From positions 1 through 64,000 of the forward strand of contig NZ_MWLO01000065.1 in assembly GCF_002198735.1 (NCBI RefSeq): 64,000 nucleotides of DNA, read 5' to 3'. A program made the translations under genes and the position numbers. The notes under the pieces are model-generated. The model was given only the letters and a program-made list of their open reading frames with translations. It did no database searches and was not told where the DNA came from. This document shows positions 28,168 to 52,678 of the stretch, piece after piece (the stretch's first letter is position 1; each line of letters begins with the position of its first letter). The DNA is from Ideonella sp. A 288. GTDB lineage: Bacteria; Pseudomonadota; Gammaproteobacteria; Burkholderiales; Burkholderiaceae_C.

Positions 28168-29439
28168 TCAATGCGCGATGCCCGCCGCGGCGGCTTCGTC
28201 GATCAGCCGGCCGGTGTGGAAGCGCTGCAGCTGGAAGGGTTCTGCCAGTTCATGGTTGTGTCCCGTGGCCAGCACATGGGCCAGCGTCCAACCGCCCACC
28301 GGGATGGCCTTGAAGCCACCGGTGCCCCAGCCGCAGTTGATGTAGAGGCCCGGCACCGGCGTGGCGCCGATGATGGGGCTGCTGTCCTGCACCACGTCGA
28401 CGATGCCGGCCCATTGGCGCAGCAGGCGCAGTCGGCTGAAGCTCGGGAACATCTCCACGGTGGCGGCCACCACGTGCTGCATCACGTCGAAGCTGCCGCG
28501 CTGGGCGTAGGACGGAAAGTGGTCCAGCGCCCCGCCGATCACCACTTCGCCCTTGTCGCTCTGGCTCCAGTAAGCGCCCAGGGAAGGAGACAAGGTCACC
28601 GTGTTGAGCACGGGCTTGACGGGTTCGCTGACCATGGCCTGCAGCGCATAGCTGGTGACTGGCAATCGAAAGCCCGCCATGTCGGCCAGCACCGACGAAT
28701 GCCCTGCCACCGCCATGGCCACCTTGTCGGCGCGGATCTCGCCGCGGTTGGTCGCCACCCCCACCACGGCCTTGCCTTGCTTGAGGAAACCCGTCACGGC
28801 ACAGTTCTGCACGATGTCCACACCCATGGCCGACGCGCCACGGGCATAGCCCCAGGCCACGGCGTCGTGCCGCGCCGACCCGCCGCGGCGCTGGATGAAG
28901 CCGCCCAGGATCGGGAACCGCGCATCGGCGCTGGAGTTCAGGCGCGGCTCCAGTTCCTGCACCTGCCGGGCGTCGAGCAGTTCGGCATCGATGCCGTTGC
29001 ACAGCATGGCGTTGGCCCAGCGTGACTGGGCGTCCAGGTCGTGCCGCGAATGGGCCAGCGTGACGATTCCACGCTGGCTGAACATGATGTTGAAGTTGAG
29101 CGCCTGCGCCAGGTGCTCGTACTGGCGCACCGAGAAGTCGTACAAGCGCGCACTCTCTGGATAGAGGTAGTTCGAGCGCACGATGGTGGTGTTGCGCCCG
29201 GTGTTGCCGCCACCGATCCAGCCGGCTTCCAGCACCGCGACATTGGTGACGCCGTGGTTCTTGGCCAGGTAGTAGGCAGTGGCCAGGCCGTGTCCACCGC
29301 CGCCGATGACGATGACGTCATAGCGCGGCTTGGGCTCGGCCTCGCGCCATGCAGGCGCCCAGTCGCTGTGGCCTGTGCGGGCAGCGGCGAACAGGTTCCA
29401 GGCAGAGTAGCGCTTGCGCGGCGGTGTCGGGTTGGGCAT
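28168..29439 (-). CDS. soxB: Sarcosine oxidase beta-subunit-type flavoprotein
   Basis: A 423-aa FAD-dependent subunit that carries the demethylating active site. FAD-binding GGGGHGLATAYYLA lies at about 46-59. His191 in SARHDAVAWG corresponds to the His that holds FMN covalently in this family. The C-terminal GWGTGGFKAIPVGG is conserved. ATG 29439 is used because similarity begins there; the frame is open to 29604. First gene of a soxBDAG-order operon, divergent from the M20 peptidase gene, with a shared operator-like site at 29605-29624. Substrate may be sarcosine or another N-methyl amino acid. Confidence 0.93.
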   Translation of the reverse strand: MPNPTPPRKRYSAWNLFAAARTGHSDWAPAWREAEPKPRYDVIVIGGGGHGLATAYYLAKNHGVTNVAVLEAGWIGGGNTGRNTTIVRSNYLYPESARLYDFSVRQYEHLAQALNFNIMFSQRGIVTLAHSRHDLDAQSRWANAMLCNGIDAELLDARQVQELEPRLNSSADARFPILGGFIQRRGGSARHDAVAWGYARGASAMGVDIVQNCAVTGFLKQGKAVVGVATNRGEIRADKVAMAVAGHSSVLADMAGFRLPVTSYALQAMVSEPVKPVLNTVTLSPSLGAYWSQSDKGEVVIGGALDHFPSYAQRGSFDVMQHVVAATVEMFPSFSRLRLLRQWAGIVDVVQDSSPIIGATPVPGLYINCGWGTGGFKAIPVGGWTLAHVLATGHNHELAEPFQLQRFHTGRLIDEAAAAGIAH

Positions 29440-29604
29440 CAAGGTGATCCGAGCGTAGTGCGAGTGAGAGGCCAGGACTTGTGCCTGCCGCACGAATAGT
29501 TGGTCGTTTGCAATTTCCGTTCGGCCGCTATTGCGGGTGGCCTGCGGGTTCTCTCTGGCGCAACTCTGTCGAGACAAGTTGTCGAGCGTCCACCACGCCA
29601 ACAA

Positions 29605-29624
29605 GTGGACAATATACTATCCAT
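29605..29624. promoter_or_regulatory. Candidate regulon operator 1 with embedded -10
   Basis: GTGGACAATATACTATCCAT; TGGA/TCCA arms around a 10-bp AT-rich centre. TATACT at 29613-29618 is a good -10 for the M20 peptidase gene (start 29667). The site lies in the divergent spacer with soxB. It matches 18/20 to the site at 33154. Confidence 0.65.
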
Positions 29625-29666
29625 TTTTTGCAACGGTCCGTGCAACATTCGATAGGGGATCCCTGA

Positions 29667-30812
29667 ATGACCAGTACCCAATCCCTGAACTTGGACGAAA
29701 TATTGGCCGGAATCCGCGCCTGGATCGAAATCGAGAGCCCCACTGACGACCCCGAAGGCATGGCCCGTATGGCCTCCCGGGTGCAGGCCGACTACGAAGC
29801 CATCGGGGTGCGCGTTGAGCGCATTGCCGGCAGGGACGGGTTTGGCGACCATTTGCTGGCCATCGCCGACAAGCACTGCCCACCCGAGGCCGCCGGCGGA
29901 CCGGGGCTGCTGATCCTGAGCCACATCGATACCGTGCACCCCATCGGCACCCTGGCCGGGCCTTTGCCTTTCCGCATTGAGGGCGACCGTGCCTATGGCC
30001 CAGGCGCCGAGGACATGAAGGGCGGCACTTACCTGGCGCTGGCCGCCGTGCGCCAGATCGGTCGGGCCGGCCTGCAGACGCACCTGCCGGTGCGGCATCT
30101 GATGGTCAGCGACGAGGAGATGGGCAGCGACACCTCGCGCGAGCACATCGTGCGCGAAGCACGACGGGCCAAGTTCGTGCTCGTCACCGAACCGGCCCGC
30201 TCGGGCGGCAAGATCGTCACGGCGCGCAAGGGGATCGCGGGTTTCACGGTCACGGCCCATGGCGTGGCGGCGCACGCCGGCGTCGAACACCACCTCGGTC
30301 GCAACGCCATCCACGAGATTGCGCACCAGGTGCTGGCACTGGAAGCGATGACCGACTACACGCGCGAGCTCACCGTCAGTGTGGGCCTGATCAAGGGCGG
30401 CACGCGGTCCAACGTGGTGCCAGACACAGCATCCGTGGAAGTGGATGTGCGCATGCCCAACCCCGAAATCGGCGAGGAAATCGTGCGTCGCATCCGAGGC
30501 CTCAAGCCCCACCTGGAAGGCGTCACGCTGACCGTCGAGGGCGGCATCAACCGCCCAGGGTACGAAAAGACGCCCGGGATCGCAGCGCTGTACGAGCATG
30601 CCAAAGGGCTGGCTGCCGAGATCGGCTTCGAGCTGATCGACCTGAAGACCGGCGGCGGCAGTGATGGCAACTTCACCGCCGCCATCGCTCCCACGCTCGA
30701 TGGCCTTGGCGTCGATGGCGATGGAGGCCATACCCTGGACGAGAGGCTGTACATCAGCAGCATCATTCCGCGCACCCGGTTGTTGATGCGGTTGATGGAG
30801 ACTCTGCGATAG
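29667..30812 (+). CDS. M20 metallopeptidase, glutamate carboxypeptidase (CPG2) type
   Basis: A 381-aa dizinc peptidase of the ArgE/DapE/CPG2 family. Metal and catalytic residues: His86 and Asp88 (SHIDTVHP), Asp116 (GAEDMKGG), Glu150-Glu151 (SDEEMGS), Glu175 (VTEPA) and a late His in GGHTLDE. The dimerisation lid domain has AHGVAAHAGV. Relatives remove C-terminal glutamate from folates or N-acyl-glutamates. No signal peptide is seen, so it acts in the cytoplasm. Divergent from soxBDAG under a shared operator-like site, which links it to glutamate and methyl-amino-acid use. Confidence 0.9.
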   Translation: MTSTQSLNLDEILAGIRAWIEIESPTDDPEGMARMASRVQADYEAIGVRVERIAGRDGFGDHLLAIADKHCPPEAAGGPGLLILSHIDTVHPIGTLAGPLPFRIEGDRAYGPGAEDMKGGTYLALAAVRQIGRAGLQTHLPVRHLMVSDEEMGSDTSREHIVREARRAKFVLVTEPARSGGKIVTARKGIAGFTVTAHGVAAHAGVEHHLGRNAIHEIAHQVLALEAMTDYTRELTVSVGLIKGGTRSNVVPDTASVEVDVRMPNPEIGEEIVRRIRGLKPHLEGVTLTVEGGINRPGYEKTPGIAALYEHAKGLAAEIGFELIDLKTGGGSDGNFTAAIAPTLDGLGVDGDGGHTLDERLYISSIIPRTRLLMRLMETLR

Positions 30813-30852
30813 CGGCGGCGGTTTCGCGTCGGTCAATCCCACCCGCAGCCCA

Positions 30853-30890
30853 CCAGGCAGTGCCGCTCAGTTCGGCGGCACTGCACCTGG
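30853..30890. terminator. Hairpin between convergent genes, possible bidirectional terminator
   Basis: GCAGTGCCGC (30857-30866) pairs perfectly with GCGGCACTGC (30875-30884) around an 8-base loop, and flanking CCAGG/CCTGG extends it. It lies between the ends of the M20 peptidase and TonB-receptor genes. No T-run follows, so termination is inferred from position. Confidence 0.5.
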
Positions 30891-30979
30891 GCATTCAGCG
30901 ATCCGGCTGCAGGCCTGGGGCTTGCAATGGGTCGCAGCCGCGATCGTGATGACGCGGCCCATCGCGTGCCGGCCGAGCT

Positions 30980-33112
30980 CTAGAACTGGGCCCGCGCCAG
31001 CACGCCGAGTGAGCGCGGTGCGACCCTGAAATCGGGCAAGCCGAAGATTCCCGGGAACGTCACGCCATTCGAATTGGTGAGGTTCTTGCCTTCCAGGTAG
31101 ACCTGCCAGGTGGGCATTTCCACCCCGAGGCGTGCGTTCAGCGTGTCGATGTTGTTGCTGGCGGCATTCACACCTTGATTGCGGACGATGAACTTCACGG
31201 GATCGGAGTGCTGGTAGTCGAGCCGAGCCATGCCGGGCAAACCAGGCGCCCAGCTGAAACGATGGTTCAGTGACACCGAAGCCGTCTTCTTGGGCACGAA
31301 GTTCAACGGATCGCCCTGGTTGCGCTCCGCGGTCTTCACGTCGTACACAAGGTCAGAGTAGCCCAGCGCCACGTCGAGCGTCGTGGATTTGGTCAGCGCC
31401 GCCGACACAGTGATGTCCAGACCCGGCCCCGAGGCCTTGCCGGAGTTGACCGTGAGCGCCTGACAAGTTGCGGGCGTGCAACCAGGCGCCAGGTCTTGCG
31501 CCTGCACGTTGCTGTACTTGCTGCGGTACGCAGCCACTTCGTACTGCAGGGCGTCGGAAAACAAGGATCCTCGATTGCCGATCTCGACGCTGACGATGTC
31601 TTCGGGTCCGTAGTTGCGCGGCGTTGCCGTGGAATTGAAGCCACCGCTTCGGAAGCCCTTGGAGGCGGTGGCATAGAGCGCACCCTTGGCTGAATAGCGC
31701 CACAGCATGTTCAGCCGGGGCGTCGTGGCACTGAACTCCGCATGGTCGTTGTAGAGGGTCGAAGGCGTGCCTGGAGGCGCAAAGCCAGACGGCAGCTTGG
31801 AGCCGACGTTCTCCGCCTTCTCCTTGAACGAGCGCAGGCCACCGGTGAGCGACAACTGAGGCGACAGGGCGTAAGTCAGTTCGCCGAACAGGGCCGTCTG
31901 GGTGACGTTGGTGGGGCCGGTGCCATCGAAGCCACCCTGCAGCCGAAGCGTGGCATCGGTCCACACGTCCGAGGTGACGGAGTGCGTGTCGGTCTTGCGG
32001 TAGTAGGCTCCCGCCGTCCAGGTCAGAGGCCCCTTGTCATCCGACTCCAGGCGAAGCTCCTGGGTCGTGATCTTCTGCGACATGTCTTGCCGGTAGGCGC
32101 CGCCGGAGCTTGGTTTGGGCAGGACCAGCGCCTTGAAGGGCGCACCAGCATAGACGGCAGTCAGTTCAGAGGTGGTGTCGATCTTGCGATCGAGGTAGCC
32201 TGTGGAACTGACCAGTCGCACGCTGCCCAGGTCGACGTTCACCGCCAGGTTGAACAGGTCGGTCTTGTCCTTGGTCGGCGACGCGATGTACGAAGCGATG
32301 GCGCGCTCGGCGTTCGAGCCTGAACTGTTCTTGGTGTCGGTTTCGGTGTGGAAGAACATCGCCGTCACCTCGACATTCGCGCCTGGCTTCACCAGCAACT
32401 TGCCACGCAAGAAGTCGCGCTTGGCGCTGTTGATGTCCTTGGCACCGTTTGCGCTGTTGTCCACCCAGCCCGGCAGGTCTTCATGGCCGGCCACCAGCCG
32501 CATGCCCGCGACTCCCGTCGACAAGGGCACGTTCACCACGCCATTGGCGCGCCAGCCTGTCTGGCCGCCGCTCAGTTGGCTGAAGCCGGCTTCAACGCTG
32601 CCCTCGAACTTGTCCAACCGCGGCGCCCGGGTGATGAAGCGGATGGTGCCGCCCATCGAACCATCGCCGTACAGCGTGCCTTGTGGCCCCCGCAACACTT
32701 CGATGCGGGCCATGTCGACCAGGGGAACGTCGAGCGAGCGCTGCGCGTCCGGCATGTTCAGCGAGATCTCGTCGAGGTAGGTGCCGACCAGCGCGGCGCC
32801 GAAGCCCACGCCTTGCGAGAGGCCGCGCAGTTGGATACGGCTGGCGCCCGGTGCGTTCTGGTTGATGAACAGCGACGGCACCACCGATTGCATCTGCTGG
32901 ATGTCGGTGACGCCGCGGTCGGCAATTTCGCTGCCACCAATGGCGGTGATCGAGTACGGCACATCGATCACCAACTGCTTGCGCTTGGACGCCGTGACCT
33001 CGACCAGCTGCTTGCCCGTTGACGCGTCGCCTGTGGTCTGGGCCATTGCCGGCCAAGACGCCAACACTGCGGCAATCGGGGTCAGCAAGATTTTGAGTGT
33101 GCGCGTGTCCAT
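30980..33112 (-). CDS. TonB-dependent outer-membrane receptor 1
   Basis: A 710-aa receptor. A signal peptide (1-24, ending AMA-Q) is followed by the plug domain (about 40-150: VPYSITAIGGSEIADRGVTDIQQM..., RIEVLRGPQGTLYGDGSMGGTIRFIT) and a 22-strand-type beta-barrel ending in FRVAPRSLGVLARAQF with terminal Phe. Its class resembles catecholate/vitamin-type receptors, but here the regulatory site at 33154 and the peptidase neighbours suggest uptake of a peptide or conjugated amino acid. Confidence 0.9.
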   Translation of the reverse strand: MDTRTLKILLTPIAAVLASWPAMAQTTGDASTGKQLVEVTASKRKQLVIDVPYSITAIGGSEIADRGVTDIQQMQSVVPSLFINQNAPGASRIQLRGLSQGVGFGAALVGTYLDEISLNMPDAQRSLDVPLVDMARIEVLRGPQGTLYGDGSMGGTIRFITRAPRLDKFEGSVEAGFSQLSGGQTGWRANGVVNVPLSTGVAGMRLVAGHEDLPGWVDNSANGAKDINSAKRDFLRGKLLVKPGANVEVTAMFFHTETDTKNSSGSNAERAIASYIASPTKDKTDLFNLAVNVDLGSVRLVSSTGYLDRKIDTTSELTAVYAGAPFKALVLPKPSSGGAYRQDMSQKITTQELRLESDDKGPLTWTAGAYYRKTDTHSVTSDVWTDATLRLQGGFDGTGPTNVTQTALFGELTYALSPQLSLTGGLRSFKEKAENVGSKLPSGFAPPGTPSTLYNDHAEFSATTPRLNMLWRYSAKGALYATASKGFRSGGFNSTATPRNYGPEDIVSVEIGNRGSLFSDALQYEVAAYRSKYSNVQAQDLAPGCTPATCQALTVNSGKASGPGLDITVSAALTKSTTLDVALGYSDLVYDVKTAERNQGDPLNFVPKKTASVSLNHRFSWAPGLPGMARLDYQHSDPVKFIVRNQGVNAASNNIDTLNARLGVEMPTWQVYLEGKNLTNSNGVTFPGIFGLPDFRVAPRSLGVLARAQF

Positions 33113-33153
33113 GCGGTCCGGTCCTTGGTGATGGGGTTGACTGCACCATGCTA

Positions 33154-33173
33154 GTGGTCAATATACTATCCGT
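33154..33173. promoter_or_regulatory. Candidate regulon operator 2
   Basis: GTGGTCAATATACTATCCGT, 41 bp upstream of the TonB-receptor start on the minus strand. It is 18/20 identical to operator 1 and its AT-rich centre could serve as the receptor -10. Confidence 0.65.
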
Positions 33174-33250
33174 CAACAGATCTGGTGCGGCTCGATGCAG
33201 GGTAAATCTGCCTATGCATGCGGCCTCTTGATCACTCGCCAGATGCTTCG

Positions 33251-33270
33251 GTGGTCTATTTAATAGACGA
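33251..33270. promoter_or_regulatory. Candidate regulon operator 3
   Basis: GTGGTCTATTTAATAGACGA; 14/20 identical to operator 2 and containing the near-palindrome GTCTATTTAATAGAC. It lies just upstream of an aminotransferase-like fragment. Confidence 0.45.
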
Positions 33271-33305
33271 CAGGTGGCCTCTCACATGACCGTACCGATC
33301 TCGGG

Positions 33306-33410
33306 TTCGCACACCGCACACGTCGATTCGCGCCCTCGATGATCGTGGCGCTGATGAAGCTCATGGGGCATCCGGGTCTGGTGTCGCTGGGCGGCGGCTT
33401 GCCATCGGAT
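33306..33410 (+). pseudogene. Fragment of a PLP-dependent aminotransferase N-terminus
   Basis: One frame reads RRFAPSMIVALMKLMGHPGLVSLGGGLPSDR. This resembles the start of MocR/2-aminoadipate-type class I aminotransferases (…IRELLKLTQ.PGxISFAGGLPxP). The frame then degenerates and meets the end of the serine-hydrolase gene, so the rest is missing. The fragment is short; identity is tentative. Confidence 0.4.
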
Positions 33411-33461
33411 CGCCCAAGGTGTGGCCACACCGGCGCAGATCGTGCGTGGTGCGCTGGCCGC

Positions 33462-34784
33462 TCAGAGCGGCCAGGCCCAGTAGATCTTGTCCTGCGGCGT
33501 GGTACCCACCAGCAGGTGCTCGACACGCTCCAGGTAGCGGATGCGGTAGCGCCGCAGGCTGTGCGTGGCATGGCGCTGCTGCTCCACCAGGTCAAAGGCC
33601 AGTGGTTCGACGCCTGTCCACAGGTCGATGACGTTGCGCACTGCACTGCCATGAGCCACCACATGCAGCAGTTCGTCGGCAAAGCAGTCCTGATCGAGCG
33701 CGGTGCCGTTGCGAAACAGTTGCGTCTTGATCCTGGCGGTGAGGGCCGGCGAGTCATCCGGGATGGGGCGCAGCGACAGGGGCGTGCTGCCGGGCGCAAA
33801 GCTCTCCAGCGCGAATTGCGCCAGATACCGAACGGCACGGGTATTGCCCGGCGCCAGGTTGCACATGGCCACCACGCCACAGCCCTGGGCGGGCACCAGG
33901 ACGGCCATTGCCGTCCAGCCGTCGTAGTGGCCTGCATGGTGACCGATGGCCGCTCCGCGGAGGGAATCGACAAACCAGCCGCATCCATAGGGCGATGGTC
34001 TCGACGTGCGCAGTGGCGCGGGCGAGAGCATCGTGGTCATGCTCGCCGTCGACAGCAGCCGAGGGCCCAACAGGGCCTGCAGCCAGACCAGCGCGCCTTG
34101 CGCCGTGAAGGAGATGTCGCCATCACCGATCACCTCACGCCGGGCACTGGCCCCATCGCGACCCGTGATGCCCAGGCCCTGCACGTTGGCATCCCGGGTC
34201 CATTGCGGGCTGGCCACCGTGGCGCCGACACAGCCCACCCGGTCGAACAGCGACTGCACTGCCGCTGCGTAGGGCCGCCCGGCCAACTCGGCGATCAGGA
34301 AGCCGAGCAGGATGTAGTTGGTGTTGGTGTAGATCCAGCCCTGGTCGGGCTCGAACGCCGTGGCCATGCTGCCGTAGGTGCGCATGAAGTCGCCGCGCCT
34401 TTCAGGCACCGTCTCGGACTCGGTATAGGCCAGGTACTCGGGCAGGCCGCTGGTGTGCCGCAGCAAGGACAGCACGGGGCGCTGCGACCATGCGGCCGGC
34501 AGATCGGCCAGGTAGCGGCCGATCGGTGCCTCGAGGTCCAATGCGCCGGCCTGGGCCAGGTCCAGCACCGCGCAAGCCGTGACATGCTTGCCCAAGGAAG
34601 CCACCGAGAACCAGGTGTCGGCGGTCACCGGCCGTTCGGAACCTGGGGCTTCGACGCCCGTGGTGAAGACACTGTGGCGCCCGGGCGCCACCAGGCCGAT
34701 CGCCAGCCCCGGGATGCCGAATTCGCGCGCCTTGTCGGTCAGGGTGGCGGCCAGTGCGGCGGGCAGGGGTGATTGTTCGTGCAT
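33462..34784 (-). CDS. Serine hydrolase, class C beta-lactamase fold
   Basis: A 440-aa penicillin-binding-protein-like hydrolase. Ser63-x-x-Lys66 (SLGK) is the nucleophile motif. YTN at about 152-154 supplies the YxN element, and a HHAGHYDG segment stands in the KTG region. No export signal is evident. The family includes D-aminopeptidases, esterases and MlrB-type peptidases; the precise reaction cannot be told. It is divergent from the XRE-cupin regulator with an operator-like site at 34800-34819. Confidence 0.85.
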   Translation of the reverse strand: MHEQSPLPAALAATLTDKAREFGIPGLAIGLVAPGRHSVFTTGVEAPGSERPVTADTWFSVASLGKHVTACAVLDLAQAGALDLEAPIGRYLADLPAAWSQRPVLSLLRHTSGLPEYLAYTESETVPERRGDFMRTYGSMATAFEPDQGWIYTNTNYILLGFLIAELAGRPYAAAVQSLFDRVGCVGATVASPQWTRDANVQGLGITGRDGASARREVIGDGDISFTAQGALVWLQALLGPRLLSTASMTTMLSPAPLRTSRPSPYGCGWFVDSLRGAAIGHHAGHYDGWTAMAVLVPAQGCGVVAMCNLAPGNTRAVRYLAQFALESFAPGSTPLSLRPIPDDSPALTARIKTQLFRNGTALDQDCFADELLHVVAHGSAVRNVIDLWTGVEPLAFDLVEQQRHATHSLRRYRIRYLERVEHLLVGTTPQDKIYWAWPL

Positions 34785-34799
34785 GGGCGGCCTTGGGTA

Positions 34800-34819
34800 G
34801 TGTTCAGTATCCTAGCCAC
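34800..34819. promoter_or_regulatory. Candidate regulon operator 4
   Basis: GTGTTCAGTATCCTAGCCAC; 14/20 identical to operator 2. Lies between the divergent serine hydrolase and XRE-cupin genes, so it could control both. Confidence 0.5.
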
Positions 34820-34869
34820 TGACATGGGGCGCGGCAAGACCCGCAGGGTGGTCGCTAAACTCGCCATGC

Positions 34870-34881
34870 CACTTCGAAGTG
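34870..34881. repeat. Perfect 12-bp palindrome before the regulator gene
   Basis: CACTTCGAAGTG, 10 bp upstream of the XRE-cupin ATG. A second possible autoregulatory site, unlike the five-member operator set. Confidence 0.35.
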
Positions 34882-34891
34882 CCATTGCCCC

Positions 34892-35557
34892 ATGAAGACC
34901 AAGACGACGCAAGACGCCCGGCCCCGCAGGAAGTCGGCCGCCCCCAAGGCAAGCCCTGCAGTCGACGCCGGCGCTCCCGCCAAGCCGGGCACCGAGCGGT
35001 CCGATGTCGAACCTTCGGCCGGCGTCGGCGCACGGCTGCGCTACGTTCGCGAGTTGCACGGCCTGTCTCAGCGTGAACTCGCACGCCGCGCGGGCCTCAA
35101 CCACGGCACCATCGGCTGCATCGAGAAGGAAACGATCTCGCCCTCTGTCGGCTCGCTGCGCAAGATCCTGGACAGCCTGCCGATGACGCTGTCGGAGTTC
35201 TTCTCGCTTGATCCGGACGTCGAGACGCAGATCTTCTTCCAGCGCGATGAGTTGCTTGAAGTCGGTGCCGGCGGCATCTCTCTGCTGCAGGTTGGACACA
35301 ACCTCAAGGGTCGCCCCCTGCAGGTGCTGCTGGAGCGTTATGCACCCGGGGCAGAGACGGCTGCGCAGCCGTACAGCCACCAGGGTGACGAGGGCGGCGT
35401 CGTGATTCAGGGTCAGGTCGAAGTCACGGTCGGCGGCGTAGCCAAGGTGTTGGGGCCGGGCGACGGTTACCTCTTCTCCAGCCGCCTGCCGCATCGGTTC
35501 CGCAATGTGGGCGACGCCGAGGCGGTCGTGGTCAGCGCCAACACACCACCGCTGTAA
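34892..35557 (+). CDS. XRE-family regulator with C-terminal cupin
   Basis: A 221-aa transcription factor. After a basic disordered N-terminus (1-45) comes an HTH_XRE domain (about 48-105: LRYVRELHGLSQRELARRAGLNHGTIGCIEKETISPSVGSLRKIL), then a cupin_2 sensor domain (about 150-220: YSHQGDEGGVVIQGQVEVTVGGVAKVLGPGDGYLFSSRLPHRFRN). PuuR-like proteins of this build respond to amines or amino acids. Its position in the middle of the five operator-like sites makes it the likely regulator. No clear ribosome site precedes ATG 34892. Confidence 0.9.
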   Translation: MKTKTTQDARPRRKSAAPKASPAVDAGAPAKPGTERSDVEPSAGVGARLRYVRELHGLSQRELARRAGLNHGTIGCIEKETISPSVGSLRKILDSLPMTLSEFFSLDPDVETQIFFQRDELLEVGAGGISLLQVGHNLKGRPLQVLLERYAPGAETAAQPYSHQGDEGGVVIQGQVEVTVGGVAKVLGPGDGYLFSSRLPHRFRNVGDAEAVVVSANTPPL

Positions 35558-35610
35558 GTCGCTGCGACGTTGCCGCGCCCTGGGGGCGAATCTCGGCTTT
35601 ACGGCATTGA

Positions 35611-35630
35611 GTGGATGAAATAATATCCAC
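35611..35630. promoter_or_regulatory. Candidate regulon operator 5 with embedded -10
   Basis: GTGGATGAAATAATATCCAC; perfect 6-bp arms GTGGAT/ATCCAC. TAATAT at 35621-35626 is a strong -10. The site ends 3 bp before the dgcN ATG, so no ribosome site is possible and the transcript would be nearly leaderless. Confidence 0.65.
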
Positions 35631-35633
35631 TGT

Positions 35634-36638
35634 ATGCCCAGTCTGCGAAAGCCCTATCTCCTGTTCCTCGGCAGCGTCACGCTGAAGTCGGATGCCAAGA
35701 CCGGCTTCGGCCTGCGCGACTGGTGCCCCGCCGATGTGATCGGCCAATGGGCATTGCCCCAGGCCACCGTGAGCCTGGGTCTGCCGGTGATCGCGCCTGC
35801 AGAGGCTGCGGCGCAGGGCGCGGGCTCTTTGCTGATCGGTGTGGCACCGGTGGGCGGCCAGTTGCCGGAGTCCTGGGTGCCGACCCTGGTGCAGGCCTTG
35901 GACGCGGGGCTGGACATCGTCAGCGGCATGCACACGCGGCTGGAGAGCCATCCCGCCCTCGCCGCTGCAGCGGCACGCAGCGGTGCGCGGCTGGTGAACG
36001 TGCGTCACAGCGACGGGCCCTTGCCCACAGGCACGGGCCGCAAGCGCAGCGGCCTGCGTGTGTTGACCGTGGGCACCGACTGTGCGCTGGGAAAGAAGTA
36101 CACCGCGCTGGCCCTGACCAAGGCGCTCCAGGCCCGCGGCGCGAAGGCCAGCTTCCGGGCCACCGGCCAGACCGGCATCATGATTGCCGGAGAAGGCATC
36201 GCCATCGACGCCGTCGTGGCCGACTTCATCGCCGGTGCAGCCGAGCAGCTGTCGCCCGACAACGCGGCCGACCACTGGGACGTGATCGAGGGCCAAGGCG
36301 CCCTGTTCCACCCGGCCTATTCGGGTGTGACCCTCGGGCTGCTGCACGGCTCGCAGCCTGACGCCCTCGTGCTCTGCCACGACCCCTCGCGCACCACGAT
36401 CGAGGACTACCCGCACATCCCCTTGCCCAGCCTGCGAGAGGCCATCCGCCGCTATGTCGAGGCCGCGCAACTGACCAATTCTGCCGTGCGCTGCGTGGGC
36501 GTGGCGATCAACTCGTCCACACTGGGCGACGGCGCATGGACGCACTATCGCCAAGCGGTGGCTGGCGAGCTGGGCCTGCCGGTCTGCGACCCCATGCGTG
36601 GCGGAGTGGATGCCATTGCCCGGGTCTTGCTGGCATGA
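35634..36638 (+). CDS. dgcN: D-glutamate N-acetyltransferase-type protein (DUF1611)
   Basis: A 334-aa DUF1611 protein. The N-terminal alpha/beta domain precedes a P-loop-like core (about 140-: VLTVGTDCALGKKYTALALTKAL) and the family block VIEGQGALFHPAYSGVTLGLLHGSQPDALVLCHD. Proteins of this family named DgcN acetylate D-glutamate, and the partner DgcA then epimerises it. The dgcA start overlaps this stop by 4 bp, which is the arrangement known for that pathway. Start ATG 35634 follows a regulatory site closely. Cytoplasmic. Confidence 0.85.
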   Translation: MPSLRKPYLLFLGSVTLKSDAKTGFGLRDWCPADVIGQWALPQATVSLGLPVIAPAEAAAQGAGSLLIGVAPVGGQLPESWVPTLVQALDAGLDIVSGMHTRLESHPALAAAAARSGARLVNVRHSDGPLPTGTGRKRSGLRVLTVGTDCALGKKYTALALTKALQARGAKASFRATGQTGIMIAGEGIAIDAVVADFIAGAAEQLSPDNAADHWDVIEGQGALFHPAYSGVTLGLLHGSQPDALVLCHDPSRTTIEDYPHIPLPSLREAIRRYVEAAQLTNSAVRCVGVAINSSTLGDGAWTHYRQAVAGELGLPVCDPMRGGVDAIARVLLA

Positions 36639-37621
36639 CCTTGCGTGTCGAGCTTGCCATCGAGCACTGGCCGCTGCTGGAGCCCTTCGAGATCGCCCGT
36701 GAGGTGATGCACGACCTGCCCCTGATCGCGCTCAAACTGAGCGACAACGCAGAGCGTACGGGCTGCGCCGAAGCGGCAGGCGTGGACTACGACGGCGAAA
36801 CGCTGGCATCGATGGCAGCGCAGATCGATTCGGTGGCCGCGCATCTGCGCGACGACCTCAGCGGAGCAGATCTGCTGAGGCTGATGCCAGCCGGCGGCGC
36901 ACGTAACGCGCTCGACTGCGCGCTGTGGGACCTGCGGGCCAAGCAGGCCGACGTCCCGGCCTGGGTCTCGGCCGGCCTGCCGGCGCCCAAGCCCGTGATC
37001 ACGGCCTTCACCCTCGGGCTGGGCAGCCCCGACGACGTTCGACGCAGAGCCCGTGCGGCGCGCGGTCTGCCGCTGATCAAGCTGAAGCTCGACGCGCACC
37101 GCCATCTCGAGCTCTTGCGCATCGTTCGCGACGAATTGCCCGACGCCCGCATCCTGGTCGATGCCAATCAATCGTGGACGGCCAGGCTGCTGTCGGAGCT
37201 GATGGACGGGTTGATTGCAGCAGGCGTCGAGCTCATCGAGCAGCCCCTGCCGCGTGGCGAGGATGCTGCCCTGGCGGGCCTGCGTTCGCCGATCCCGATC
37301 TGCGCCGACGAGTCCTGTACCGATCGGTCTTCTTTGCCCGCCCTGCAAGGCCGCTATCAGGTCGTGAACATCAAGCTCGACAAGTGCGGTGGTTTCACCG
37401 AGGCGCTGGCCTTGGCGCACGAGGCGCGGTCGCTGGGGTTCGAACTGATGGTGGGCAACATGTGCGGTACCTCCTTGGGCATGGCACCCGCCTTCCTGGT
37501 GGCCCAGTTCGCCCGGTGGGCCGATCTCGACGGACCTTTGCTGCAGGTGGGCGACCGCGCTGCGGCCATGACCTTCCACCTGGGCATCGTGCAGCCGCCT
37601 GAGACCGCCTTGTGGGGTTGA
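36635..37621 (+). CDS. dgcA: Enolase-superfamily epimerase, N-acetyl-D-glutamate racemase type
   Basis: A 328-aa member of the muconate-lactonising/dipeptide-epimerase branch. Catalytic Lys149-x-Lys151 (IKLKLD), metal ligands Asp176 (VDANQSW), Glu202 (IEQPLP) and Asp225 (ADES), and second-face Lys in NIKLDKCGG (247-250). All residues for 1,1-proton transfer are present. Next to dgcN it should racemise N-acetyl-D-glutamate to the L-form; dipeptide epimerase activity is the alternative. Confidence 0.88.
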   Translation: MTLRVELAIEHWPLLEPFEIAREVMHDLPLIALKLSDNAERTGCAEAAGVDYDGETLASMAAQIDSVAAHLRDDLSGADLLRLMPAGGARNALDCALWDLRAKQADVPAWVSAGLPAPKPVITAFTLGLGSPDDVRRRARAARGLPLIKLKLDAHRHLELLRIVRDELPDARILVDANQSWTARLLSELMDGLIAAGVELIEQPLPRGEDAALAGLRSPIPICADESCTDRSSLPALQGRYQVVNIKLDKCGGFTEALALAHEARSLGFELMVGNMCGTSLGMAPAFLVAQFARWADLDGPLLQVGDRAAAMTFHLGIVQPPETALWG

Positions 37622-37671
37622 CCGCGCAGATGCAAGACGACCCCTCACCCACCCCCATCAGGAAGCACCCA

Positions 37672-38565
37672 ATGGAACCTGCCGAGAGCACAGCGCCCAC
37701 CGCCGAGATGGCCCTGAACGCCCGAGTGATCGATTTCACCTCGAAGGTCAACGGCCGTGCCTATCGGCTGTTTGTCTCCATCCCCACGCGGCGGCCGACA
37801 CCGCCCGAGGGGCATGCGGTGCTTTACCTGATCGACGGCAACCTGCACTTCGGCATCGCCGTCGACACAGCCCGCATCCAGGCCTGCTGGCCCGATGTCA
37901 TCGACCCTGTCGTCGTGGGCATCGGCTACCCCACCGACAGTGTCAGCACCGCGCTGGACCTGCGCATGATCGACCTGACGACGCCGATCTCCGAAGAACG
38001 GTTGAAGAAGGGTTTCATCGCGAAGATGCCTCGGCCATCCGAAGGTTTTGGCGGCATGGACCACTACTTTCGCGTCATCGAGGAAGAGGTCAAGCCGCGT
38101 GTCGAGGCGTTGGTGGCCATCAACCGGCAGGACCAGGTGCTGATGGGCCATTCGCTGGGCGGGCTGACGACGCTGCATGCGTTGTTCCGCCACACCGCGT
38201 CGTTCCAGCAGTTCGTGGCCATCAGCCCATCCATTTGGTACAACGACCGTGCGGTGCTGGCGAACGAGGCCGGCTTCAGTGACCGGGTCCGGTCGGGGCA
38301 GGTCAAGGCCCGCGCGTTGATCACGGTGGGCGCGCTGGAGTCCACGTTTCGCTTTGTCCCCGGACTTCCCGCTGGCGAGCAAGACTTCCGCGACATGACC
38401 GAAGAGTGCCGCATGGTGCCCAACACGGTCGAGCTCGGCGCCAGGCTCGCAGCGCTCGCATCGCCCGGCTTCCATGTGGAAACCGTGGTGCACGAGGGCG
38501 ACGACCACAACATGGTGCCGCCCGCAGGCATCGCGCGCGGCGTGCGCTTCGCCTTTCGGCGATAG
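37672..38565 (+). CDS. Alpha/beta-hydrolase esterase (IroE/Fes-like)
   Basis: A 297-aa putative esterase of the Esterase_D/IroE type. Nucleophile elbow GHSLGG (about 157-162), downstream acid region near VGALEST and a late His in EGDDHNMVPP. Family members hydrolyse esters or amides of siderophores and other conjugates. The start is ATG 37672 with AGGAAG six bases upstream; the frame is open from 37612. Third gene of the dgc operon, 50 bp after dgcA. No convincing signal peptide. Confidence 0.85.
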   Translation: MEPAESTAPTAEMALNARVIDFTSKVNGRAYRLFVSIPTRRPTPPEGHAVLYLIDGNLHFGIAVDTARIQACWPDVIDPVVVGIGYPTDSVSTALDLRMIDLTTPISEERLKKGFIAKMPRPSEGFGGMDHYFRVIEEEVKPRVEALVAINRQDQVLMGHSLGGLTTLHALFRHTASFQQFVAISPSIWYNDRAVLANEAGFSDRVRSGQVKARALITVGALESTFRFVPGLPAGEQDFRDMTEECRMVPNTVELGARLAALASPGFHVETVVHEGDDHNMVPPAGIARGVRFAFRR

Positions 38566-38603
38566 ACGCGGCGCTGCCGGGAACCGAATGCCGAGAGGTC
38601 TGA

Positions 38604-40103
38604 ATGAGCCCGTCGCCTGCCTACGACGCCCTGGTGGCACACCACCGACGCGTGCATGACCTGGAGCATCTGCAGGCCATCGCCACGTGGGACCGAATGA
38701 CCCACATGCCGCCCGCAGGCGGACCCGCTCGCGCGGCCGCTCAGGCGGCGCTTGCCGTGTTGATCAAGCAGTTGCAGGCCGATCCCACCCTCGCCCGGCA
38801 GTTCGAGGCCGCCGCTGACGAGCCCTTGCTGGGCGATGCGGCACTGAACTTCGCGCGCATGCGACAGGCGCGTCGCATCGAAGCCGCGATTCCCGCGGCC
38901 CTGGCCGAACGCCGTGAACTCGCCACTGGTGCGGCCATGCAGGCCTGGGGCCGCGCCCGGCAGGACGACAACTGGGACACCTTTGCCGACGCGTGGGCGC
39001 CGGTGGTGGCCGTGACGCGCGAATCGGCCACGCGGCTGGGCGATGCCTTGGGTCTGCAGCCCATGGACGCCTTGCTGGAGCGTTGGGAGCCGGGCCTGCG
39101 CATGGCTCGGGTCAACGCCTTGTTTGGGCAAGTTCAGGGGTGGCTGCCGCCGCTGCTTGAACAGGCCTTGGTTGCGCAGGCCAACTCGCCGCAGCCGTTG
39201 GAGCCTGTCGGCCCTTTTCCAGCGTCAGCGCAGCAACGGCTGTGCGAACAGGTGATGGCCTTGCTCGGCTTCGACTTCGATGCCGGCCGCCTGGACACCA
39301 CGCAGCACCCCTTCACCGGTGGCGTGCCCGAAGACGTGCGGACGGCCACCCGTTTCGACGAGGCCAACTTCCTGCCGGCCCTGGTCGGCACCATTCACGA
39401 GACGGGGCATGCGCGTTACCAACAGAACCTGCCACGGGCCTGGCTGGGCCAGCCGCTGGCCGGGCCACACTCGGCCGCCCTGCACGAAGGCCAGGCGTTG
39501 ATCTTCGAGCGCCAGCTGGCGCCCGAGCCCGCCTTCTGCCAGCTGCTGGCGCCGCTGCTGCACCAGGCCTTTGGTCCTCAGCCCGCGTTCGAGCCGGGCA
39601 ACCTGACGCGGCTGCTGCAACGCATCCGGCCCGGCCCCATCCGCGTTGCGGCCGACGAGTTGACCTACCCACTGCACGTCATCGTTCGCGTCGACATCGA
39701 GCAGGCTCTGGTGGCGGGCGAGATCGGGGTGGGTGACGTGCCCGCCTGGTGGCACGAGCGCATGCAAGCTCTGCTGGGCGTGGGACCGCAGGCCGCTTTC
39801 AGCCAAGGCCCCTTGCAAGACCCGCACTGGGTGCACGGCATGTTCGGCTACTTCCCGGCCTACCTGCTGGGTGCCATGGTGGCGGCGCAGTGTTTCGACG
39901 CCCTGCGGCGTGAAGTGCCAGACCTGCCAGACCAGGTGGCGGGCGGCAACTGCAGGCCCATCGGTGATTGGCTCGCCCCGCGCATCTGGCAACAGGGTGC
40001 GCGCCACGATCTGGATGCCATGTTGAAACAAGCCACCGGCAAACCCTTGTCCGCCACCGCACTGCGTGAGCAACTGGAGCAGCGCCATGGCCGCCTCCAC
40101 TGA
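38604..40103 (+). CDS. M32 metallocarboxypeptidase (Taq type)
   Basis: A 499-aa carboxypeptidase. Zinc motif HETGH at His265-His269, with the family signature DLEHLQAIATWDRMTHMPPAGGPAR at the N-terminus and conserved GPFP-, TQHPF- and R-I-rich blocks. M32 enzymes release C-terminal residues from short peptides with broad specificity in the cytoplasm. 38 bp after the esterase gene; its last 17 bp overlap the MFS gene, so both are translated together. Confidence 0.93.
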   Translation: MSPSPAYDALVAHHRRVHDLEHLQAIATWDRMTHMPPAGGPARAAAQAALAVLIKQLQADPTLARQFEAAADEPLLGDAALNFARMRQARRIEAAIPAALAERRELATGAAMQAWGRARQDDNWDTFADAWAPVVAVTRESATRLGDALGLQPMDALLERWEPGLRMARVNALFGQVQGWLPPLLEQALVAQANSPQPLEPVGPFPASAQQRLCEQVMALLGFDFDAGRLDTTQHPFTGGVPEDVRTATRFDEANFLPALVGTIHETGHARYQQNLPRAWLGQPLAGPHSAALHEGQALIFERQLAPEPAFCQLLAPLLHQAFGPQPAFEPGNLTRLLQRIRPGPIRVAADELTYPLHVIVRVDIEQALVAGEIGVGDVPAWWHERMQALLGVGPQAAFSQGPLQDPHWVHGMFGYFPAYLLGAMVAAQCFDALRREVPDLPDQVAGGNCRPIGDWLAPRIWQQGARHDLDAMLKQATGKPLSATALREQLEQRHGRLH

Positions 40104-41457
40104 GGCCGCAGTACCACTGCCAGAGGGCGCTGCCGCCGAGCGGGCGCCGATGTCCGCATGGGTCAGCCTGCTGGTGCTGGTGGCCTTGGGCCTGTACACC
40201 TACATGGACCGGCAGATCTTCGGATTGCAGGCCGAGCCCTTGCGCAAGGCGCTGGGGCTGTCTGACTTGCAGTTCGGCCTGTTGCAGGGGGTCAGTGTGG
40301 CCCTGTTCGCGGCCGTGGTCGGCTACCCCATCGCGTGGTTGTCAGACCGCTTTGACCGCCGCACGGTGCTGGCCGGCTGCATCGCCACCTGGAGCCTGGC
40401 CGTTGGTGCCTGCGGCCTGGCGCGTGACTTCAACGAACTGTTTGTCACCAGTGCCTTGGTGGGCGCGGCCGAGGCCGGCTTGCTGCCGATCGCCTATGCC
40501 TTGATTCCTGAACTGTTCCGCGGCGGCCAGCGGCAGTTGGCCAACTCCTTGTTCATCGTCACCGGGCGCTTGGTGGTGGGTCTGGTCATTGCGATGTGCG
40601 GGTGGATGATCCACGCCATTGACCTCTGGCGGCCGCTGCTGCCCGACGTGCTGCAGGCCTTGCCGACCTGGCGACTGGCATTCTTTGCCACGGCCCTGCC
40701 GGGCATCGTGTTCGTGCCGATGATCCTGTTGCTGCCCATCAACAAGCGTGGGCCGGCCCGACCGCCCCCGGGTGCCGCGACGGCTGTGCAAGCCAAGCAG
40801 CCGTCGGTCTGGCCGTTCTTGCGCAGCCAGCGTTTCTCGTTTGCCACCTTCATGTTGTCGGTGGGCTTGCTGGTGTTCGGCTTTGGCGCCACCGGCGCCT
40901 TCATCCCCGTGGTGGCCATGCGCCAGATGGGCGTGACATCGCTGGACCTGGGCAATGCGATGGGCATCGCCACGTTCGTGTCATCGGCCGTGGGGTTGTT
41001 GATCGCCAATGTGGGCATGAAGTGGCTGACACCTCGGCTGGGCCCGATGTTGCCCGTGCGGGTTCTGGCCTTCGCCGCGGCAGCCAGCGGTGTCTTTGCC
41101 GCAACGCTCTACTTGGCGAGGACGCCGGTGGAGCTGTTCACACTGATGGCCTTGCACCACACCTTCCTGATGGCCGGCACGATGGTCTTCCCCACGGCAC
41201 TTCAAGAGATGACGCCGCAACCTATGCGTGCGCGCCTGATTTCGCTGGTCATCATGTTCAACATGGTGCTGGGTTCCCTGAGCCCCGCCGTGGTGGGCGC
41301 CATCTCCGACGCCCTGAAGTCGCGTCCCGATGGCCTGATGCTGGCGATGACGGCCACATCCACGACCGCCCTGATGTTGGCCGCTGGATTGATGCTGCTC
41401 TGCGGCCGTGGCTATGTGCAGACCACACGCGCAGCGCGCGCCGTGGAGGCGGGCTGA
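40087..41457 (+). CDS. MFS transporter 1
   Basis: A 456-aa major facilitator with about 12 membrane segments. The A-motif-like loop between helices 2 and 3 is WLSDRFDRRTV. A YMDRQIFGL segment in helix 1 is like the Spns/sugar-phosphate-type MFS group. Substrate probably a peptide, amino acid or its conjugate, judged from the operon only. It begins inside the M32 gene. Confidence 0.88.
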   Translation: MAASTEAAVPLPEGAAAERAPMSAWVSLLVLVALGLYTYMDRQIFGLQAEPLRKALGLSDLQFGLLQGVSVALFAAVVGYPIAWLSDRFDRRTVLAGCIATWSLAVGACGLARDFNELFVTSALVGAAEAGLLPIAYALIPELFRGGQRQLANSLFIVTGRLVVGLVIAMCGWMIHAIDLWRPLLPDVLQALPTWRLAFFATALPGIVFVPMILLLPINKRGPARPPPGAATAVQAKQPSVWPFLRSQRFSFATFMLSVGLLVFGFGATGAFIPVVAMRQMGVTSLDLGNAMGIATFVSSAVGLLIANVGMKWLTPRLGPMLPVRVLAFAAAASGVFAATLYLARTPVELFTLMALHHTFLMAGTMVFPTALQEMTPQPMRARLISLVIMFNMVLGSLSPAVVGAISDALKSRPDGLMLAMTATSTTALMLAAGLMLLCGRGYVQTTRAARAVEAG

Positions 41458-41541: not shown

Positions 41542-42231
41542 CTACCCAAGCCATTGCGCAATAGCGGTCAGCGGCTTCTTGATGCCACCGTGCACCGGCA
41601 CCTGGCAGCCCGCCTTCGGGTAGCCCACGACGAGCAGGATGATCGGTTTCTCTGAACTCGGCCGGCCACACAGCTTGTTGAGAAAGCTCATCGGGTTGGG
41701 CGTGTGCGTCAGCGTCGCCAACCCGGCGTGGTGCAGTGCGGCGATCAGGAAGCCCGAGGCGATGCCCACCGACTCGGGCACGTAGTAGTGGCTGAACTTC
41801 TCACCATCCGGATGCACGCCGTACTTCTGCGCAAAGATGGCGATCAGCACCGGCGCCTCTTCCAGGAAGGGCTTGTTCGAGTCGGTGCCCAGCGGCGCCA
41901 GTGCGTCCAGCCATTCCTGCGGCGCGCGTTCGTTGTAGAAGCTGCGCTCCTCGACCTCGGCCGCCTCGCGCACGCGACGCTTGTGCTCGGGGTCGGTGAT
42001 GACGCTGAAGAACCAGGGCTGCTGGTTGGCGCCCGATGGCGCGGTGCCAGCGGCCAGAAGGCAGTGTTCGATGACCTCGCGCGGCACGGGCCGGCTGTCG
42101 AAGTCGCGCACCGTACGGCGGCGCTGCAGATCGGCATGGAAGGCGCGTGCGCGCTCCACCATCTCTGGTTGCGGGTACTCGCGGTAGGCGGGCAGCGGCT
42201 CCAGGATGTACGGGTCAGGGTTGCGGGTCAT
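41542..42231 (-). CDS. Nitroreductase-fold flavoprotein, iodotyrosine-deiodinase-like
   Basis: A 229-aa FMN enzyme. [14 protein letters not shown] and [12 protein letters not shown] are nitroreductase FMN-binding blocks. The middle part [41 protein letters not shown], with [27 protein letters not shown] and [17 protein letters not shown], follows the layout of iodotyrosine deiodinase (IYD), which reductively dehalogenates halotyrosines. BluB is a more distant alternative. Last gene of the eight-gene minus operon; start overlaps the M3 stop by 4 bp. Confidence 0.85.
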
Positions 42232-45355: not shown

Positions 45356-46119
45356 GTCAGCACGGAATCGAGGAAGCTGCGCACTGGCGGCACCGCCAGC
45401 TCTGGCACCATGCACACGCCATGGCCCTGGCCCGCGATTTCGTGCACCGTCCAACCCTGCTCCTCGAGCTGCACGCGGTGCTCCCGGATGATCGACGCGA
45501 TGCGGATCGGGATGCCAGCCTCAATGAGGTCGCCTTCACCGCCGAAGAACGCCATCTTCGGGCAGGCGATGCGGGCCACGGACTCGGCCTCGGCCTCGGG
45601 CCAGTTCAGCATGCTCGCGTAGTAGGTTTCCCACTGACGGTACTGGCCCTTCGACCGCAGCACCTTGAGCGATGAAGGCTCGGGGTCGGCCTGCTTCAGC
45701 CGCGTGGCCTGCAGGATGCCCGCATAGGGCGCACCCAGCGGGGGCCAGCCGCCCAGCACCAAGGCCGTCAGCCGGTCGGTGCGCGCGGCCAGTTGAAGCC
45801 CGACGGCGGCGCCCCAGGAATAGCCCCAGTAGACGAAGCGGTCGAAGCCGGCCGCGCTGGCCACGGCCAGCAGATCGGCGCACACGCGATCGGCCGTGAG
45901 AGCTTCCGGCGCGATGTCACGGCTGCCGCCGATGCTGGGGTAGTCAACGCGCAGCACACGGTAGCGGTCGGTCAGCCGGTTCAGATAGCCGTCGAGCACC
46001 GGCTGCATCTCGCTGCCGAACAGCTCGGTGAACGAGGCCATCAGCGGCAGGCCGATGAGCAGGGGTTGGCCATGTCCCTGCACGTCGTAGAACACGCCGC
46101 TGGCCGGGTCAAGGGGCAT
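45352..46119 (-). CDS. Alpha/beta hydrolase
   Basis: A 255-aa hydrolase. Nucleophile Ser101 in GYSWG, acid Asp in GGEGDLIE and His in GQGHGV complete a triad. No closer family identified; substrate unknown. Start overlaps the DUF885 stop by 11 bp and its stop overlaps the beta-lactamase-fold gene. Confidence 0.85.
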   Translation of the reverse strand: MPLDPASGVFYDVQGHGQPLLIGLPLMASFTELFGSEMQPVLDGYLNRLTDRYRVLRVDYPSIGGSRDIAPEALTADRVCADLLAVASAAGFDRFVYWGYSWGAAVGLQLAARTDRLTALVLGGWPPLGAPYAGILQATRLKQADPEPSSLKVLRSKGQYRQWETYYASMLNWPEAEAESVARIACPKMAFFGGEGDLIEAGIPIRIASIIREHRVQLEEQGWTVHEIAGQGHGVCMVPELAVPPVRSFLDSVLT

Positions 46120-49041: not shown

Positions 49042-49044
49042 GGC

Positions 49045-50355: not shown

Positions 50356-50361
50356 CCAGCC

Positions 50362-52533: not shown

Positions 52534-52678
52534 GGTGCGGGTCCTTCTTTGGGCAGGTGGGCTGAAGACTCCATGCCACGATAGGGGCCCGTCAAACCGG
52601 CAGCATTTGAACTTGCACCAAAGATTTAGGCGATCGGCACGACCTCGCGTTCGCATGGCCTGCCTGATCGGGTGAACC

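What the first reader, a model, noticed from the sequence alone, without database searches (positions are those of the whole stretch)
29605..35630. Five copies of a 20-bp near-palindrome define a previously unlisted regulon
GTGGACAATATACTATCCAT (29605), GTGGTCAATATACTATCCGT (33154), GTGGTCTATTTAATAGACGA (33251), GTGTTCAGTATCCTAGCCAC (34800) and GTGGATGAAATAATATCCAC (35611) all sit at gene starts. They precede soxBDAG/M20, the TonB receptor, an aminotransferase relic, serine hydrolase/XRE-cupin, and dgcNA. The AT-rich centre doubles as the -10. The XRE-cupin protein at 34892 is the natural binder.
Basis: partly seen in the sequence, partly recalled or inferred. Interest (0 to 1): 0.75.

Follow-up and report, generated by a model that had tools for sequence, protein, structure and literature searches.

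The report
Local repressor switch for D-glutamate genes
A short DNA "lock", repeated in front of neighbouring genes that look made for taking up and digesting D-glutamate compounds, is conserved in related bacteria together with one regulator gene that most likely binds it; it is a new example of a known kind of local gene switch.

Summary
The five 20-bp sites are at the stated places. Three (29605, 33154, 35611) are strong: a matrix from relatives' sites alone ranks them 1-3 of 63,981 window positions, and the 20-mer pattern with up to 3 mismatches matches nowhere else in the 7-Mb genome. Site 34800 is a conserved hybrid, 33251 only half a site; a weak site at 34848 was missed. In six related loci sharing the XRE-cupin gene the motif (consensus GTGGATAATATATTATCCAC) stands at the same promoters, as far as their contigs hold them; eight other dgcN genes lack it. 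This makes the XRE-cupin protein the likely binder. Best reading: a local, autoregulated repressor of M20 hydrolase, TonB receptor, serine hydrolase and dgcNA, released by a D-glutamate-type metabolite. Membership of soxBDAG is not supported. Binding was not tested. Kind: new member of the XRE-cupin local repressors.

The parts
29605..29624 (.). Operator A, GTGGACAATATACTATCCAT, 42 bp before the M20 hydrolase start; contains TATACT (29613-29618), a plausible -10
   Evidence: rank 1 of 63,981 with leave-window-out matrix; aligned at the same place in the 5 of 7 loci whose sequence holds M20; identity 0.80 in operator vs 0.35 in the rest, rank 2 of 242 windows of 20 columns
29667..30812 (+). M20 hydrolase, related to carboxypeptidase G2 (glutamate carboxypeptidase type)
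   Evidence: Pfam PF01546/PF07687; closest solved chain 1cg2, E 7.1e-42
30980..33112 (-). TonB-dependent receptor
   Evidence: PF00593, PF07715
33154..33173 (.). Operator B, fills the 17-bp spacer between predicted -35 TTGACG (33176-33171) and -10 TAGCAT (33153-33148) of the TonB receptor promoter
   Evidence: rank 3 of 63,981; promoter scan, 2 such sites found in 6.3 kb with 0.9 expected; present in the 4 loci with this receptor ortholog in place; identity 0.83 vs 0.52, rank 9 of 160 windows
33251..33270 (.). Site C, weak/hybrid: right half like the homologues' operators; before the aminotransferase relic
   Evidence: score 2.9 with the clade matrix; right half 5.0-14.5 and left half -3.5 to 0.8 with the homologue matrix in 4 of 4 loci
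33288..33483 (+). Aminotransferase relic: 40 aligned residues (31-70) and the last 25 (404-428) remain, in different frames
   Evidence: tblastn with the 428-aa protein of L011 (coordinates)
33462..34784 (-). Serine hydrolase of the beta-lactamase/D-aminopeptidase fold; no signal peptide seen by eye
   Evidence: PF00144; best solved chains alkaline D-peptidase, DD-carboxypeptidase, D-amino acid amidase
34800..34819 (.). Operator D1, hybrid: left half TGTTCA (homologue type), right half TATCCA type (TAGCCA here); over GATACT, plausible -10 of the serine hydrolase
   Evidence: TGTTCA half in 7 of 7 loci; score 9.7 with the clade matrix
34848..34867 (.). Operator D2, weak in the window, 24 bp before the XRE-cupin start; stronger in L012/L013
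   Evidence: score 3.1 in the window, 19.6 in L012 and L013; aligned
34892..35557 (+). XRE-cupin regulator, 221 aa, predicted binder; HTH 49-103, recognition helix region NHGTIGCI, cupin 147-215
   Evidence: PF01381, PF07883; PuuR model NF007408 138.1 bits, cut-off 211
35611..35630 (.). Operator E; TTTACG at 35598-35603, 17-bp spacer, TAATAT 35621-35626 inside the operator; ATG 7 nt after the -10 (leaderless mRNA likely)
   Evidence: rank 2 of 63,981; aligned in 7 of 7 loci; identity 0.89 vs 0.43, rank 1 of 86 windows; coordinates. The -35/-10 pair was read by eye and is not in the list
35634..36638 (+). dgcN, N-acetyltransferase DgcN-like
   Evidence: NF041892 439.3 bits, cut-off 480
36635..37621 (+). 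dgcA, N-acetyl-D-Glu racemase; ATG overlaps the dgcN stop
   Evidence: NF042940 401 bits, cut-off 400; start read
37612..41457 (+). Likely same operon: esterase 37612-38565, M32 carboxypeptidase 38604-40103, MFS transporter 40066-41457
   Evidence: Pfam; same order in L010-L014

Best explanation
The sites are operators of the XRE-cupin protein encoded at 34892. As a dimer it binds a 20-bp palindrome (GTGGATAATATATTATCCAC) that overlaps the -10 or the -35/-10 spacer of the dgcNA, M20, TonB receptor and serine hydrolase promoters, and weaker hybrid sites around its own gene. It represses them by blocking RNA polymerase. A small acidic amino-acid metabolite (D-Glu, an N-acetyl-Glu or a D-Glu peptide), taken up through the TonB receptor, would bind the cupin and release it; the hydrolases free D-Glu, and DgcN/DgcA turn it into N-acetyl-L-Glu. 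Shown by sequence: sites, conservation, overlap with predicted promoters, co-occurrence, helix/half-site covariation. Inferred: binding, repression, ligand, pathway flux.
For: Own genome: three matches of the 20-mer pattern in 7 Mb, all here. 399 family genomes: matches without mismatch to a degenerate 18-mer at 7 places, 3 in G000 and 3 in G081, the only 2 of 399 with the 86-100% regulator; the seventh (G260) lies alone in an AT-rich intergenic stretch. E and D1 are kept in 6 of 6 related loci, A in the 4 and B in the 3 that hold those genes. Operators are among the most conserved 20 columns: rank 2 of 242 (A), 9 of 160 (B), 1 of 86 (E). Eight other dgcN genes, including a second one in G081, have no site above 3.4 in stretches of about 4 kb, against 28.9 and 33.1. 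TN[GS]-helix homologues have upstream palindrome aTGTttAaaATttTaaACAt, log-likelihood 155.6 vs 32-52 in six shuffles; PSSQIS ones have A[CT]GCTCAATATT[AT]TGAGCAA. The homologue matrix finds the five sites. Published XRE-cupin proteins are described as local inhibitors bound beside their own genes; DbuR covers a 20-bp palindrome with the -10.
Against: No binding or expression data. D1, D2 and C are weak with the clade matrix, so the sites upstream of the regulator's own gene are the weakest. The ligand is guessed from gene content. The pattern was written after seeing L011-L015, one of which (L014) is the G081 locus; with one mismatch it matches in 82 of 399 genomes, the reversed control in about 28 (my count of the table). 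In one search at most 7 candidates per genome were scored. With the ideal 18-mer and 3 mismatches the reversed control gives 1 (G000) and 2 (G081) matches per strand against 2 and 2. An XRE protein of this type, NceR, is reported as an activator (title seen in the references of PMC12724383), so the sign of control is inferred. The structure prediction did not finish.
Confidence: 0.8

Rival explanations
1. Another regulator, encoded elsewhere, binds the operators; the XRE-cupin gene is only one more target.
For: No binding data. There is an AraC-type regulator at 52679 in the window, one in L014 and a DeoR-type one in L015.
Against: Those differ from locus to locus; among the genes that I examined by Pfam or tblastn the XRE-cupin is the only regulator common to the seven loci, though not every ORF was examined. 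Homologues of the XRE-cupin carry upstream palindromes of the same length that change with the recognition helix.
Confidence: 0.12
2. Only A, B and E are real operators; D1, D2 and C are promoter sequence that resembles them by chance. (This can hold together with the best explanation.)
For: Scores 9.7, 3.1 and 2.9 with the clade matrix; C not in the four-copy repeat family.
Against: D1 keeps TGTTCA in 7 of 7 loci; the homologue matrix ranks D1 and C among the top five of 6.3 kb.
Confidence: 0.3
3. The palindromes are promoter elements (-10 regions) without a dedicated repressor.
For: AT-rich centres coincide with -10-like hexamers in E and perhaps A, D1.
Against: TGG/CCA ends are conserved outside any -10, B lies in a spacer, and the eight other dgcN loci lack the motif.
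Confidence: 0.04

Closest known systems
XRE-cupin local repressors of Pseudomonas (PauR, PsdR, ErfA; PMC7901475, passages read)
   Same: HTH plus cupin, one to 12 sites, at least one beside the own gene, palindromic operators, targets for uptake and processing of small molecules
   Different: Its targets differ: the words DgcN and glutamate do not occur in that paper's main text. The operator sequences are in figures that are not held, so they were not compared
DbuR of Pseudomonas putida (PMC12724383, passages read)
   Same: XRE-cupin repressor of a D-amino acid catabolic operon, 20-bp palindrome that includes the -10
   Different: Other half-site (palindrome AATTCTCATATATTAGAATT), D-branched-chain amino acids
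PuuR (NF007408)
   Same: Closest NCBIfam model, 138.1 bits over residues 44-219
   Different: Below the 211-bit cut-off. Homologues with the TN[GS]-type helix sit next to alanine and aldehyde dehydrogenase genes (L050, L074) or GABA genes (L090) in the three loci examined
DgcN-DgcA D-glutamate pathway (Yu et al. 2023; paper not held; known here from passages of PMC12363236 and PMC10845958)
   Same: dgcN and dgcA side by side
   Different: Linked here to M20, M32, serine hydrolase, TonB receptor and an XRE-cupin regulator; I cannot say how the published clusters are regulated

Membership tests
XRE-cupin transcriptional repressors | N-terminal Cro/CI-type HTH and C-terminal cupin | tested here: met
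   HTH_3 38.9 bits (cut-off 23), Cupin_2 62.3 bits (cut-off 27.2)
XRE-cupin transcriptional repressors | Palindromic operator beside the own gene and few sites in the genome | tested here: met
   E directly downstream of and weak D1/D2 upstream of the gene; three strong sites in 7 Mb
XRE-cupin transcriptional repressors | Operator overlaps the core promoter | tested here: met
   E over a -10-like hexamer, B over the spacer; hexamers are predicted, not mapped
XRE-cupin transcriptional repressors | Binding and repression shown | not testable with these tools
   needs EMSA and mutant
PuuR (NF007408 equivalog) | Score above curated cut-off | tested here: not met
   138.1 of 211 bits
DgcN (NF041892) | Score above curated cut-off | tested here: not met
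   439.3 of 480 bits, over profile positions 1-324 of 326; works-like claim stands, formal membership does not
DgcA (NF042940) | Score above curated cut-off | tested here: met
   401 bits, cut-off 400

The most novel reading that the evidence does not exclude
The locus is an inducible island for digesting D-Glu-containing peptides such as cyanobacterial cyclic peptides: two of the six related loci are titled Roseateles/Paucibacter toxinivorans, a species of which strain 2C20 is reported to degrade microcystins without mlr genes. The regulator was recruited from a PuuR-like polyamine/GABA repressor by changing its recognition helix (TNGTIS to NHGTIG) and operator half-site (TGTYTA to TGGATA), and the hybrid sites D1 and C keep one old half each as weak operators.
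Probability: 0.1. Interest if true: 0.75.

Novelty: new member of a known kind. Interest (0 to 1): 0.45.

Why it matters
It names a regulator, an operator and a candidate inducer class for a D-glutamate catabolic cluster in Burkholderiales, and gives a natural case of a repressor family in which recognition helix and operator half-site change together, with hybrid sites left over. If the link to cyanobacterial peptides holds, it would offer candidate genes for mlr-independent microcystin breakdown.

Tried and rejected
Palindrome counting (complementary pairs in 20-mers upstream of the regulator in 41 loci, homologues and six clade loci) did not discriminate: 14 of 41 with 8 or more pairs, 7.7 expected. 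A search for members elsewhere in the own genome gave none with the 20-mer or the ideal 18-mer; one match with one mismatch at 29692 lies inside M20 and is taken as chance. The G260 match was followed up and rejected as isolated. Sox as a target: in L011 an M19 dipeptidase gene lies between a SoxB-like gene and M20, and in L014 a SoxB-like gene lies at the other end of the cluster. The intact aminotransferase of L011 resembles MocR aminotransferase domains but shows no GntR domain in Pfam, so it is not a likely rival binder. A plasmid search found homologues only below 60% identity, in 197 records. The structure job was asked for ten times and had not finished, so fold and ligand pocket were not examined.

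Errors and limits of mine: soxB was translated out of frame, so its identities there are not those of the real protein; the SoxB-like calls for L011 and L014 rest on Pfam. D2 of L014 is one base out of register, so its score there is void; C of L011, L013 and L014 is one base out of register (right). The null of 71 loci (highest 26.0) included loci fetched by a motif pattern; one search gives one without them (53 loci, 390,775 bases, highest 16.3, in loci of homologues). The shuffles kept single-base composition only and had fewer starts (25 against 60) and iterations than the real run. Of 26 TN-type loci fetched, 18 were kept after removing near-duplicates; only 30 of the 42 places listed were fetched.

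Full report
Observation. The five 20-mers stand at 29605, 33154, 33251, 34800 and 35611. In the own genome (6,980,783 bases, 164 contigs) pattern GTGGWYNATATAATATCCAC with up to 3 mismatches finds three places, all in this window (A 29605, B 33154, E 35611); the reversed control finds none. The ideal 18-mer with up to 3 mismatches finds A and E in G000 and two places of the same locus in G081; the reversed control finds 1 and 2 matches per strand, so this looser scan is not discriminating by count, only by place.

Independent scoring. A matrix built from 12 sites of L011-L015, none from the window or its 96% relative L010, ranks A, E and B first, second and third of 63,981 positions (32.2, 30.2, 26.0), while 9.6 Mb of Markov sequence peaked at 19.2; D1 scores 9.7, D2 3.1, C 2.9. 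Leave-out scoring of the seven loci gives E rank 1 in six of seven and rank 2 in the window. The repeat finder on 29500-35700 groups A, B, D1 and E without being given a motif.

Relatives. The regulator occurs at 86-100% identity in 2 of 399 family genomes; 4 more have 51% homologues at E 1e-25 (at most 7 candidates scored per genome). Within the 21 genus genomes only the own one has it at E 1e-30. A scan of genome contigs gave six loci at 80-96% (L010 Rubrivivax MAG, L011 Limnohabitans 2KL-51, L012 Paucibacter toxinivorans MAG, L013 Burkholderiales MAG, L014 Roseateles toxinivorans DSM 16998, L015 Rubrivivax MAG) and ten weaker ones. M20, TonB receptor, serine hydrolase, XRE-cupin, dgcN, dgcA, esterase, M32 and MFS are found in that order in L011, L013 and L014; L010 and L012 begin inside or near the serine hydrolase and keep the rest to the right; L015 has M20, serine hydrolase, XRE-cupin, dgcN, dgcA, esterase and more distant MFS and TonB proteins, and no M32 hit. 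The aminotransferase was confirmed by Pfam in L011 only.

Anatomy. E is aligned directly before the dgcN ATG in 7 of 7 loci: TTTACG, 17 bp, TAATAT inside the operator, then 7 nt to the ATG, which suggests a leaderless transcript; these hexamers were read by eye and are not in the list. B fills the spacer between TTGACG and TAGCAT of the receptor promoter (2 promoter-like sites in 6.3 kb, 0.9 expected). A lies 42 bp before M20 in the window and is aligned in the 5 of 7 loci that hold M20. Between the serine hydrolase and the regulator there are two weak sites, D1 and D2. Operator identity against the rest of the block is 0.80/0.35 (A), 0.83/0.52 (B) and 0.89/0.43 (E).

Specificity. 399 family genomes scanned with TGGWYRRWATAHTRTCCR, one mismatch allowed: 82 have some match and about 28 have a match of the reversed control (my count of the table), but matches without mismatch fall at seven places, three in G000, three in G081 and one in G260. 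The last lies in an AT-rich gap on another contig than that genome's XRE-cupin homologue. The pattern was written after seeing the related loci. Ten dgcN matches were found in 9 of 250 family genomes; the eight outside the two clade loci have no site above 3.4 in stretches of about 4 kb, against 28.9 and 33.1.

Who binds. In 399 order genomes 40 have a match at E 1e-40, the own genome included. Helices fall into NHGT[IV][GR] (the seven loci), TN[GS]-type, PSSQIS and AHATIS. De novo palindromic EM on 18 upstream regions (of 26 TN-type loci fetched) gives aTGTttAaaATttTaaACAt, log-likelihood 155.6 against 32-52 for six shuffles that kept single-base composition and were run with fewer starts. 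An Azospirillum homologue outside the training set, next to gabT and a succinate-semialdehyde dehydrogenase gene, has its best place of 10.5 kb, ATGTTTAATAAATTAAACAA (31.2), upstream of the regulator; a Microvirga homologue gave only a weak site (10.3), and the four Halomonas/Billgrantia loci 12.1-23.8 just before the matched stretch. This foreign matrix, applied to 29400-35700, returns exactly D1, A, B, C and E as its five best; 0 of 500 column-permuted matrices do; over the whole window they rank 2, 3, 4, 6 and 8. D1 keeps the TN-type half TGTTCA on one side in 7 of 7 loci and a TGGATA-like half on the other; C shows a TN-type right half. The PSSQIS class has A[CT]GCTCAATATT[AT]TGAGCAA close to the regulator. 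Half-site and helix thus change together, which points to the XRE-cupin protein as the binder. For the AHATIS class I saw no clear site.

Function. M20 is nearest to carboxypeptidase G2 among solved chains, the serine hydrolase to D-peptidases and D-amino acid amidase; DgcA meets and DgcN narrowly misses its NCBIfam cut-off. PMC10845958 describes conversion of D-Glu to L-Glu by a DgcN-DgcA pathway and PMC12363236 an irreversible racemisation of acidic D-amino acids by it (passages); the acetylated intermediates are taken from the model names and from recall of Yu et al. 2023, which is not held. Export signals were judged by eye only. I infer uptake of a D-Glu conjugate, cytoplasmic hydrolysis and racemisation through acetylation, under a repressor relieved by a metabolite of the route.

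Literature. XRE-cupin proteins of Pseudomonas are described as local, specialised inhibitors that bind beside their own genes at palindromes (PMC7901475, passages); DbuR binds a 20-bp palindrome with the -10 and controls D-branched-chain amino acid genes (PMC12724383, passages), and its reference list names an XRE protein, NceR, as an activator. PMC8068134 (passages) reports that Paucibacter toxinivorans 2C20 degrades microcystins but lacks mlr genes; NCBI taxonomy gives that name as Roseateles toxinivorans; that DSM 16998 is strain 2C20 is recalled, not shown. The link to cyanobacterial peptides is a guess from gene content and names.

Verdict. A conserved, local operator set for a new XRE-cupin regulator, most likely a repressor; three strong sites with hybrid or weak sites around them; sox not shown to belong.

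Noticed in passing
35598-35636: dgcN appears to be transcribed from a leaderless promoter; in the alignment the operator with its -10 stands at the same short distance from the ATG in all seven loci.
   Followed up: partly
33288-33483: Aminotransferase gene reduced by an internal deletion to 40 aligned N-terminal residues and the last 25, while intact in L011.
   Followed up: partly
57499-63460: TnsA-like and TniQ genes (Tn7-like transposition proteins) to the right of the peptide-degradation genes.
   Followed up: no
42228-53752: M3 peptidase, alpha/beta hydrolases, DUF885 protein, MFS, second TonB receptor and AraC regulator: possibly a second peptide-use cluster next to the first.
   Followed up: no
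L015:15180-15265: Two operator-like places (scores 10.7 and 14.2) upstream of a different TonB receptor (40% identical) in a Rubrivivax MAG, which may mean receptor replacement under the same regulator.
   Followed up: partly
L088: Second dgcN paralogue (66%) of G081 on another contig without the operator.
   Followed up: partly
L006-L009:2098-2117: A possible third operator class, A[CT]GCTCAATATT[AT]TGAGCAA, about 30 bp beyond the 5' end of the matched stretch of XRE-cupin homologues with recognition helix PSSQIS; their start codons were not determined.
   Followed up: partly
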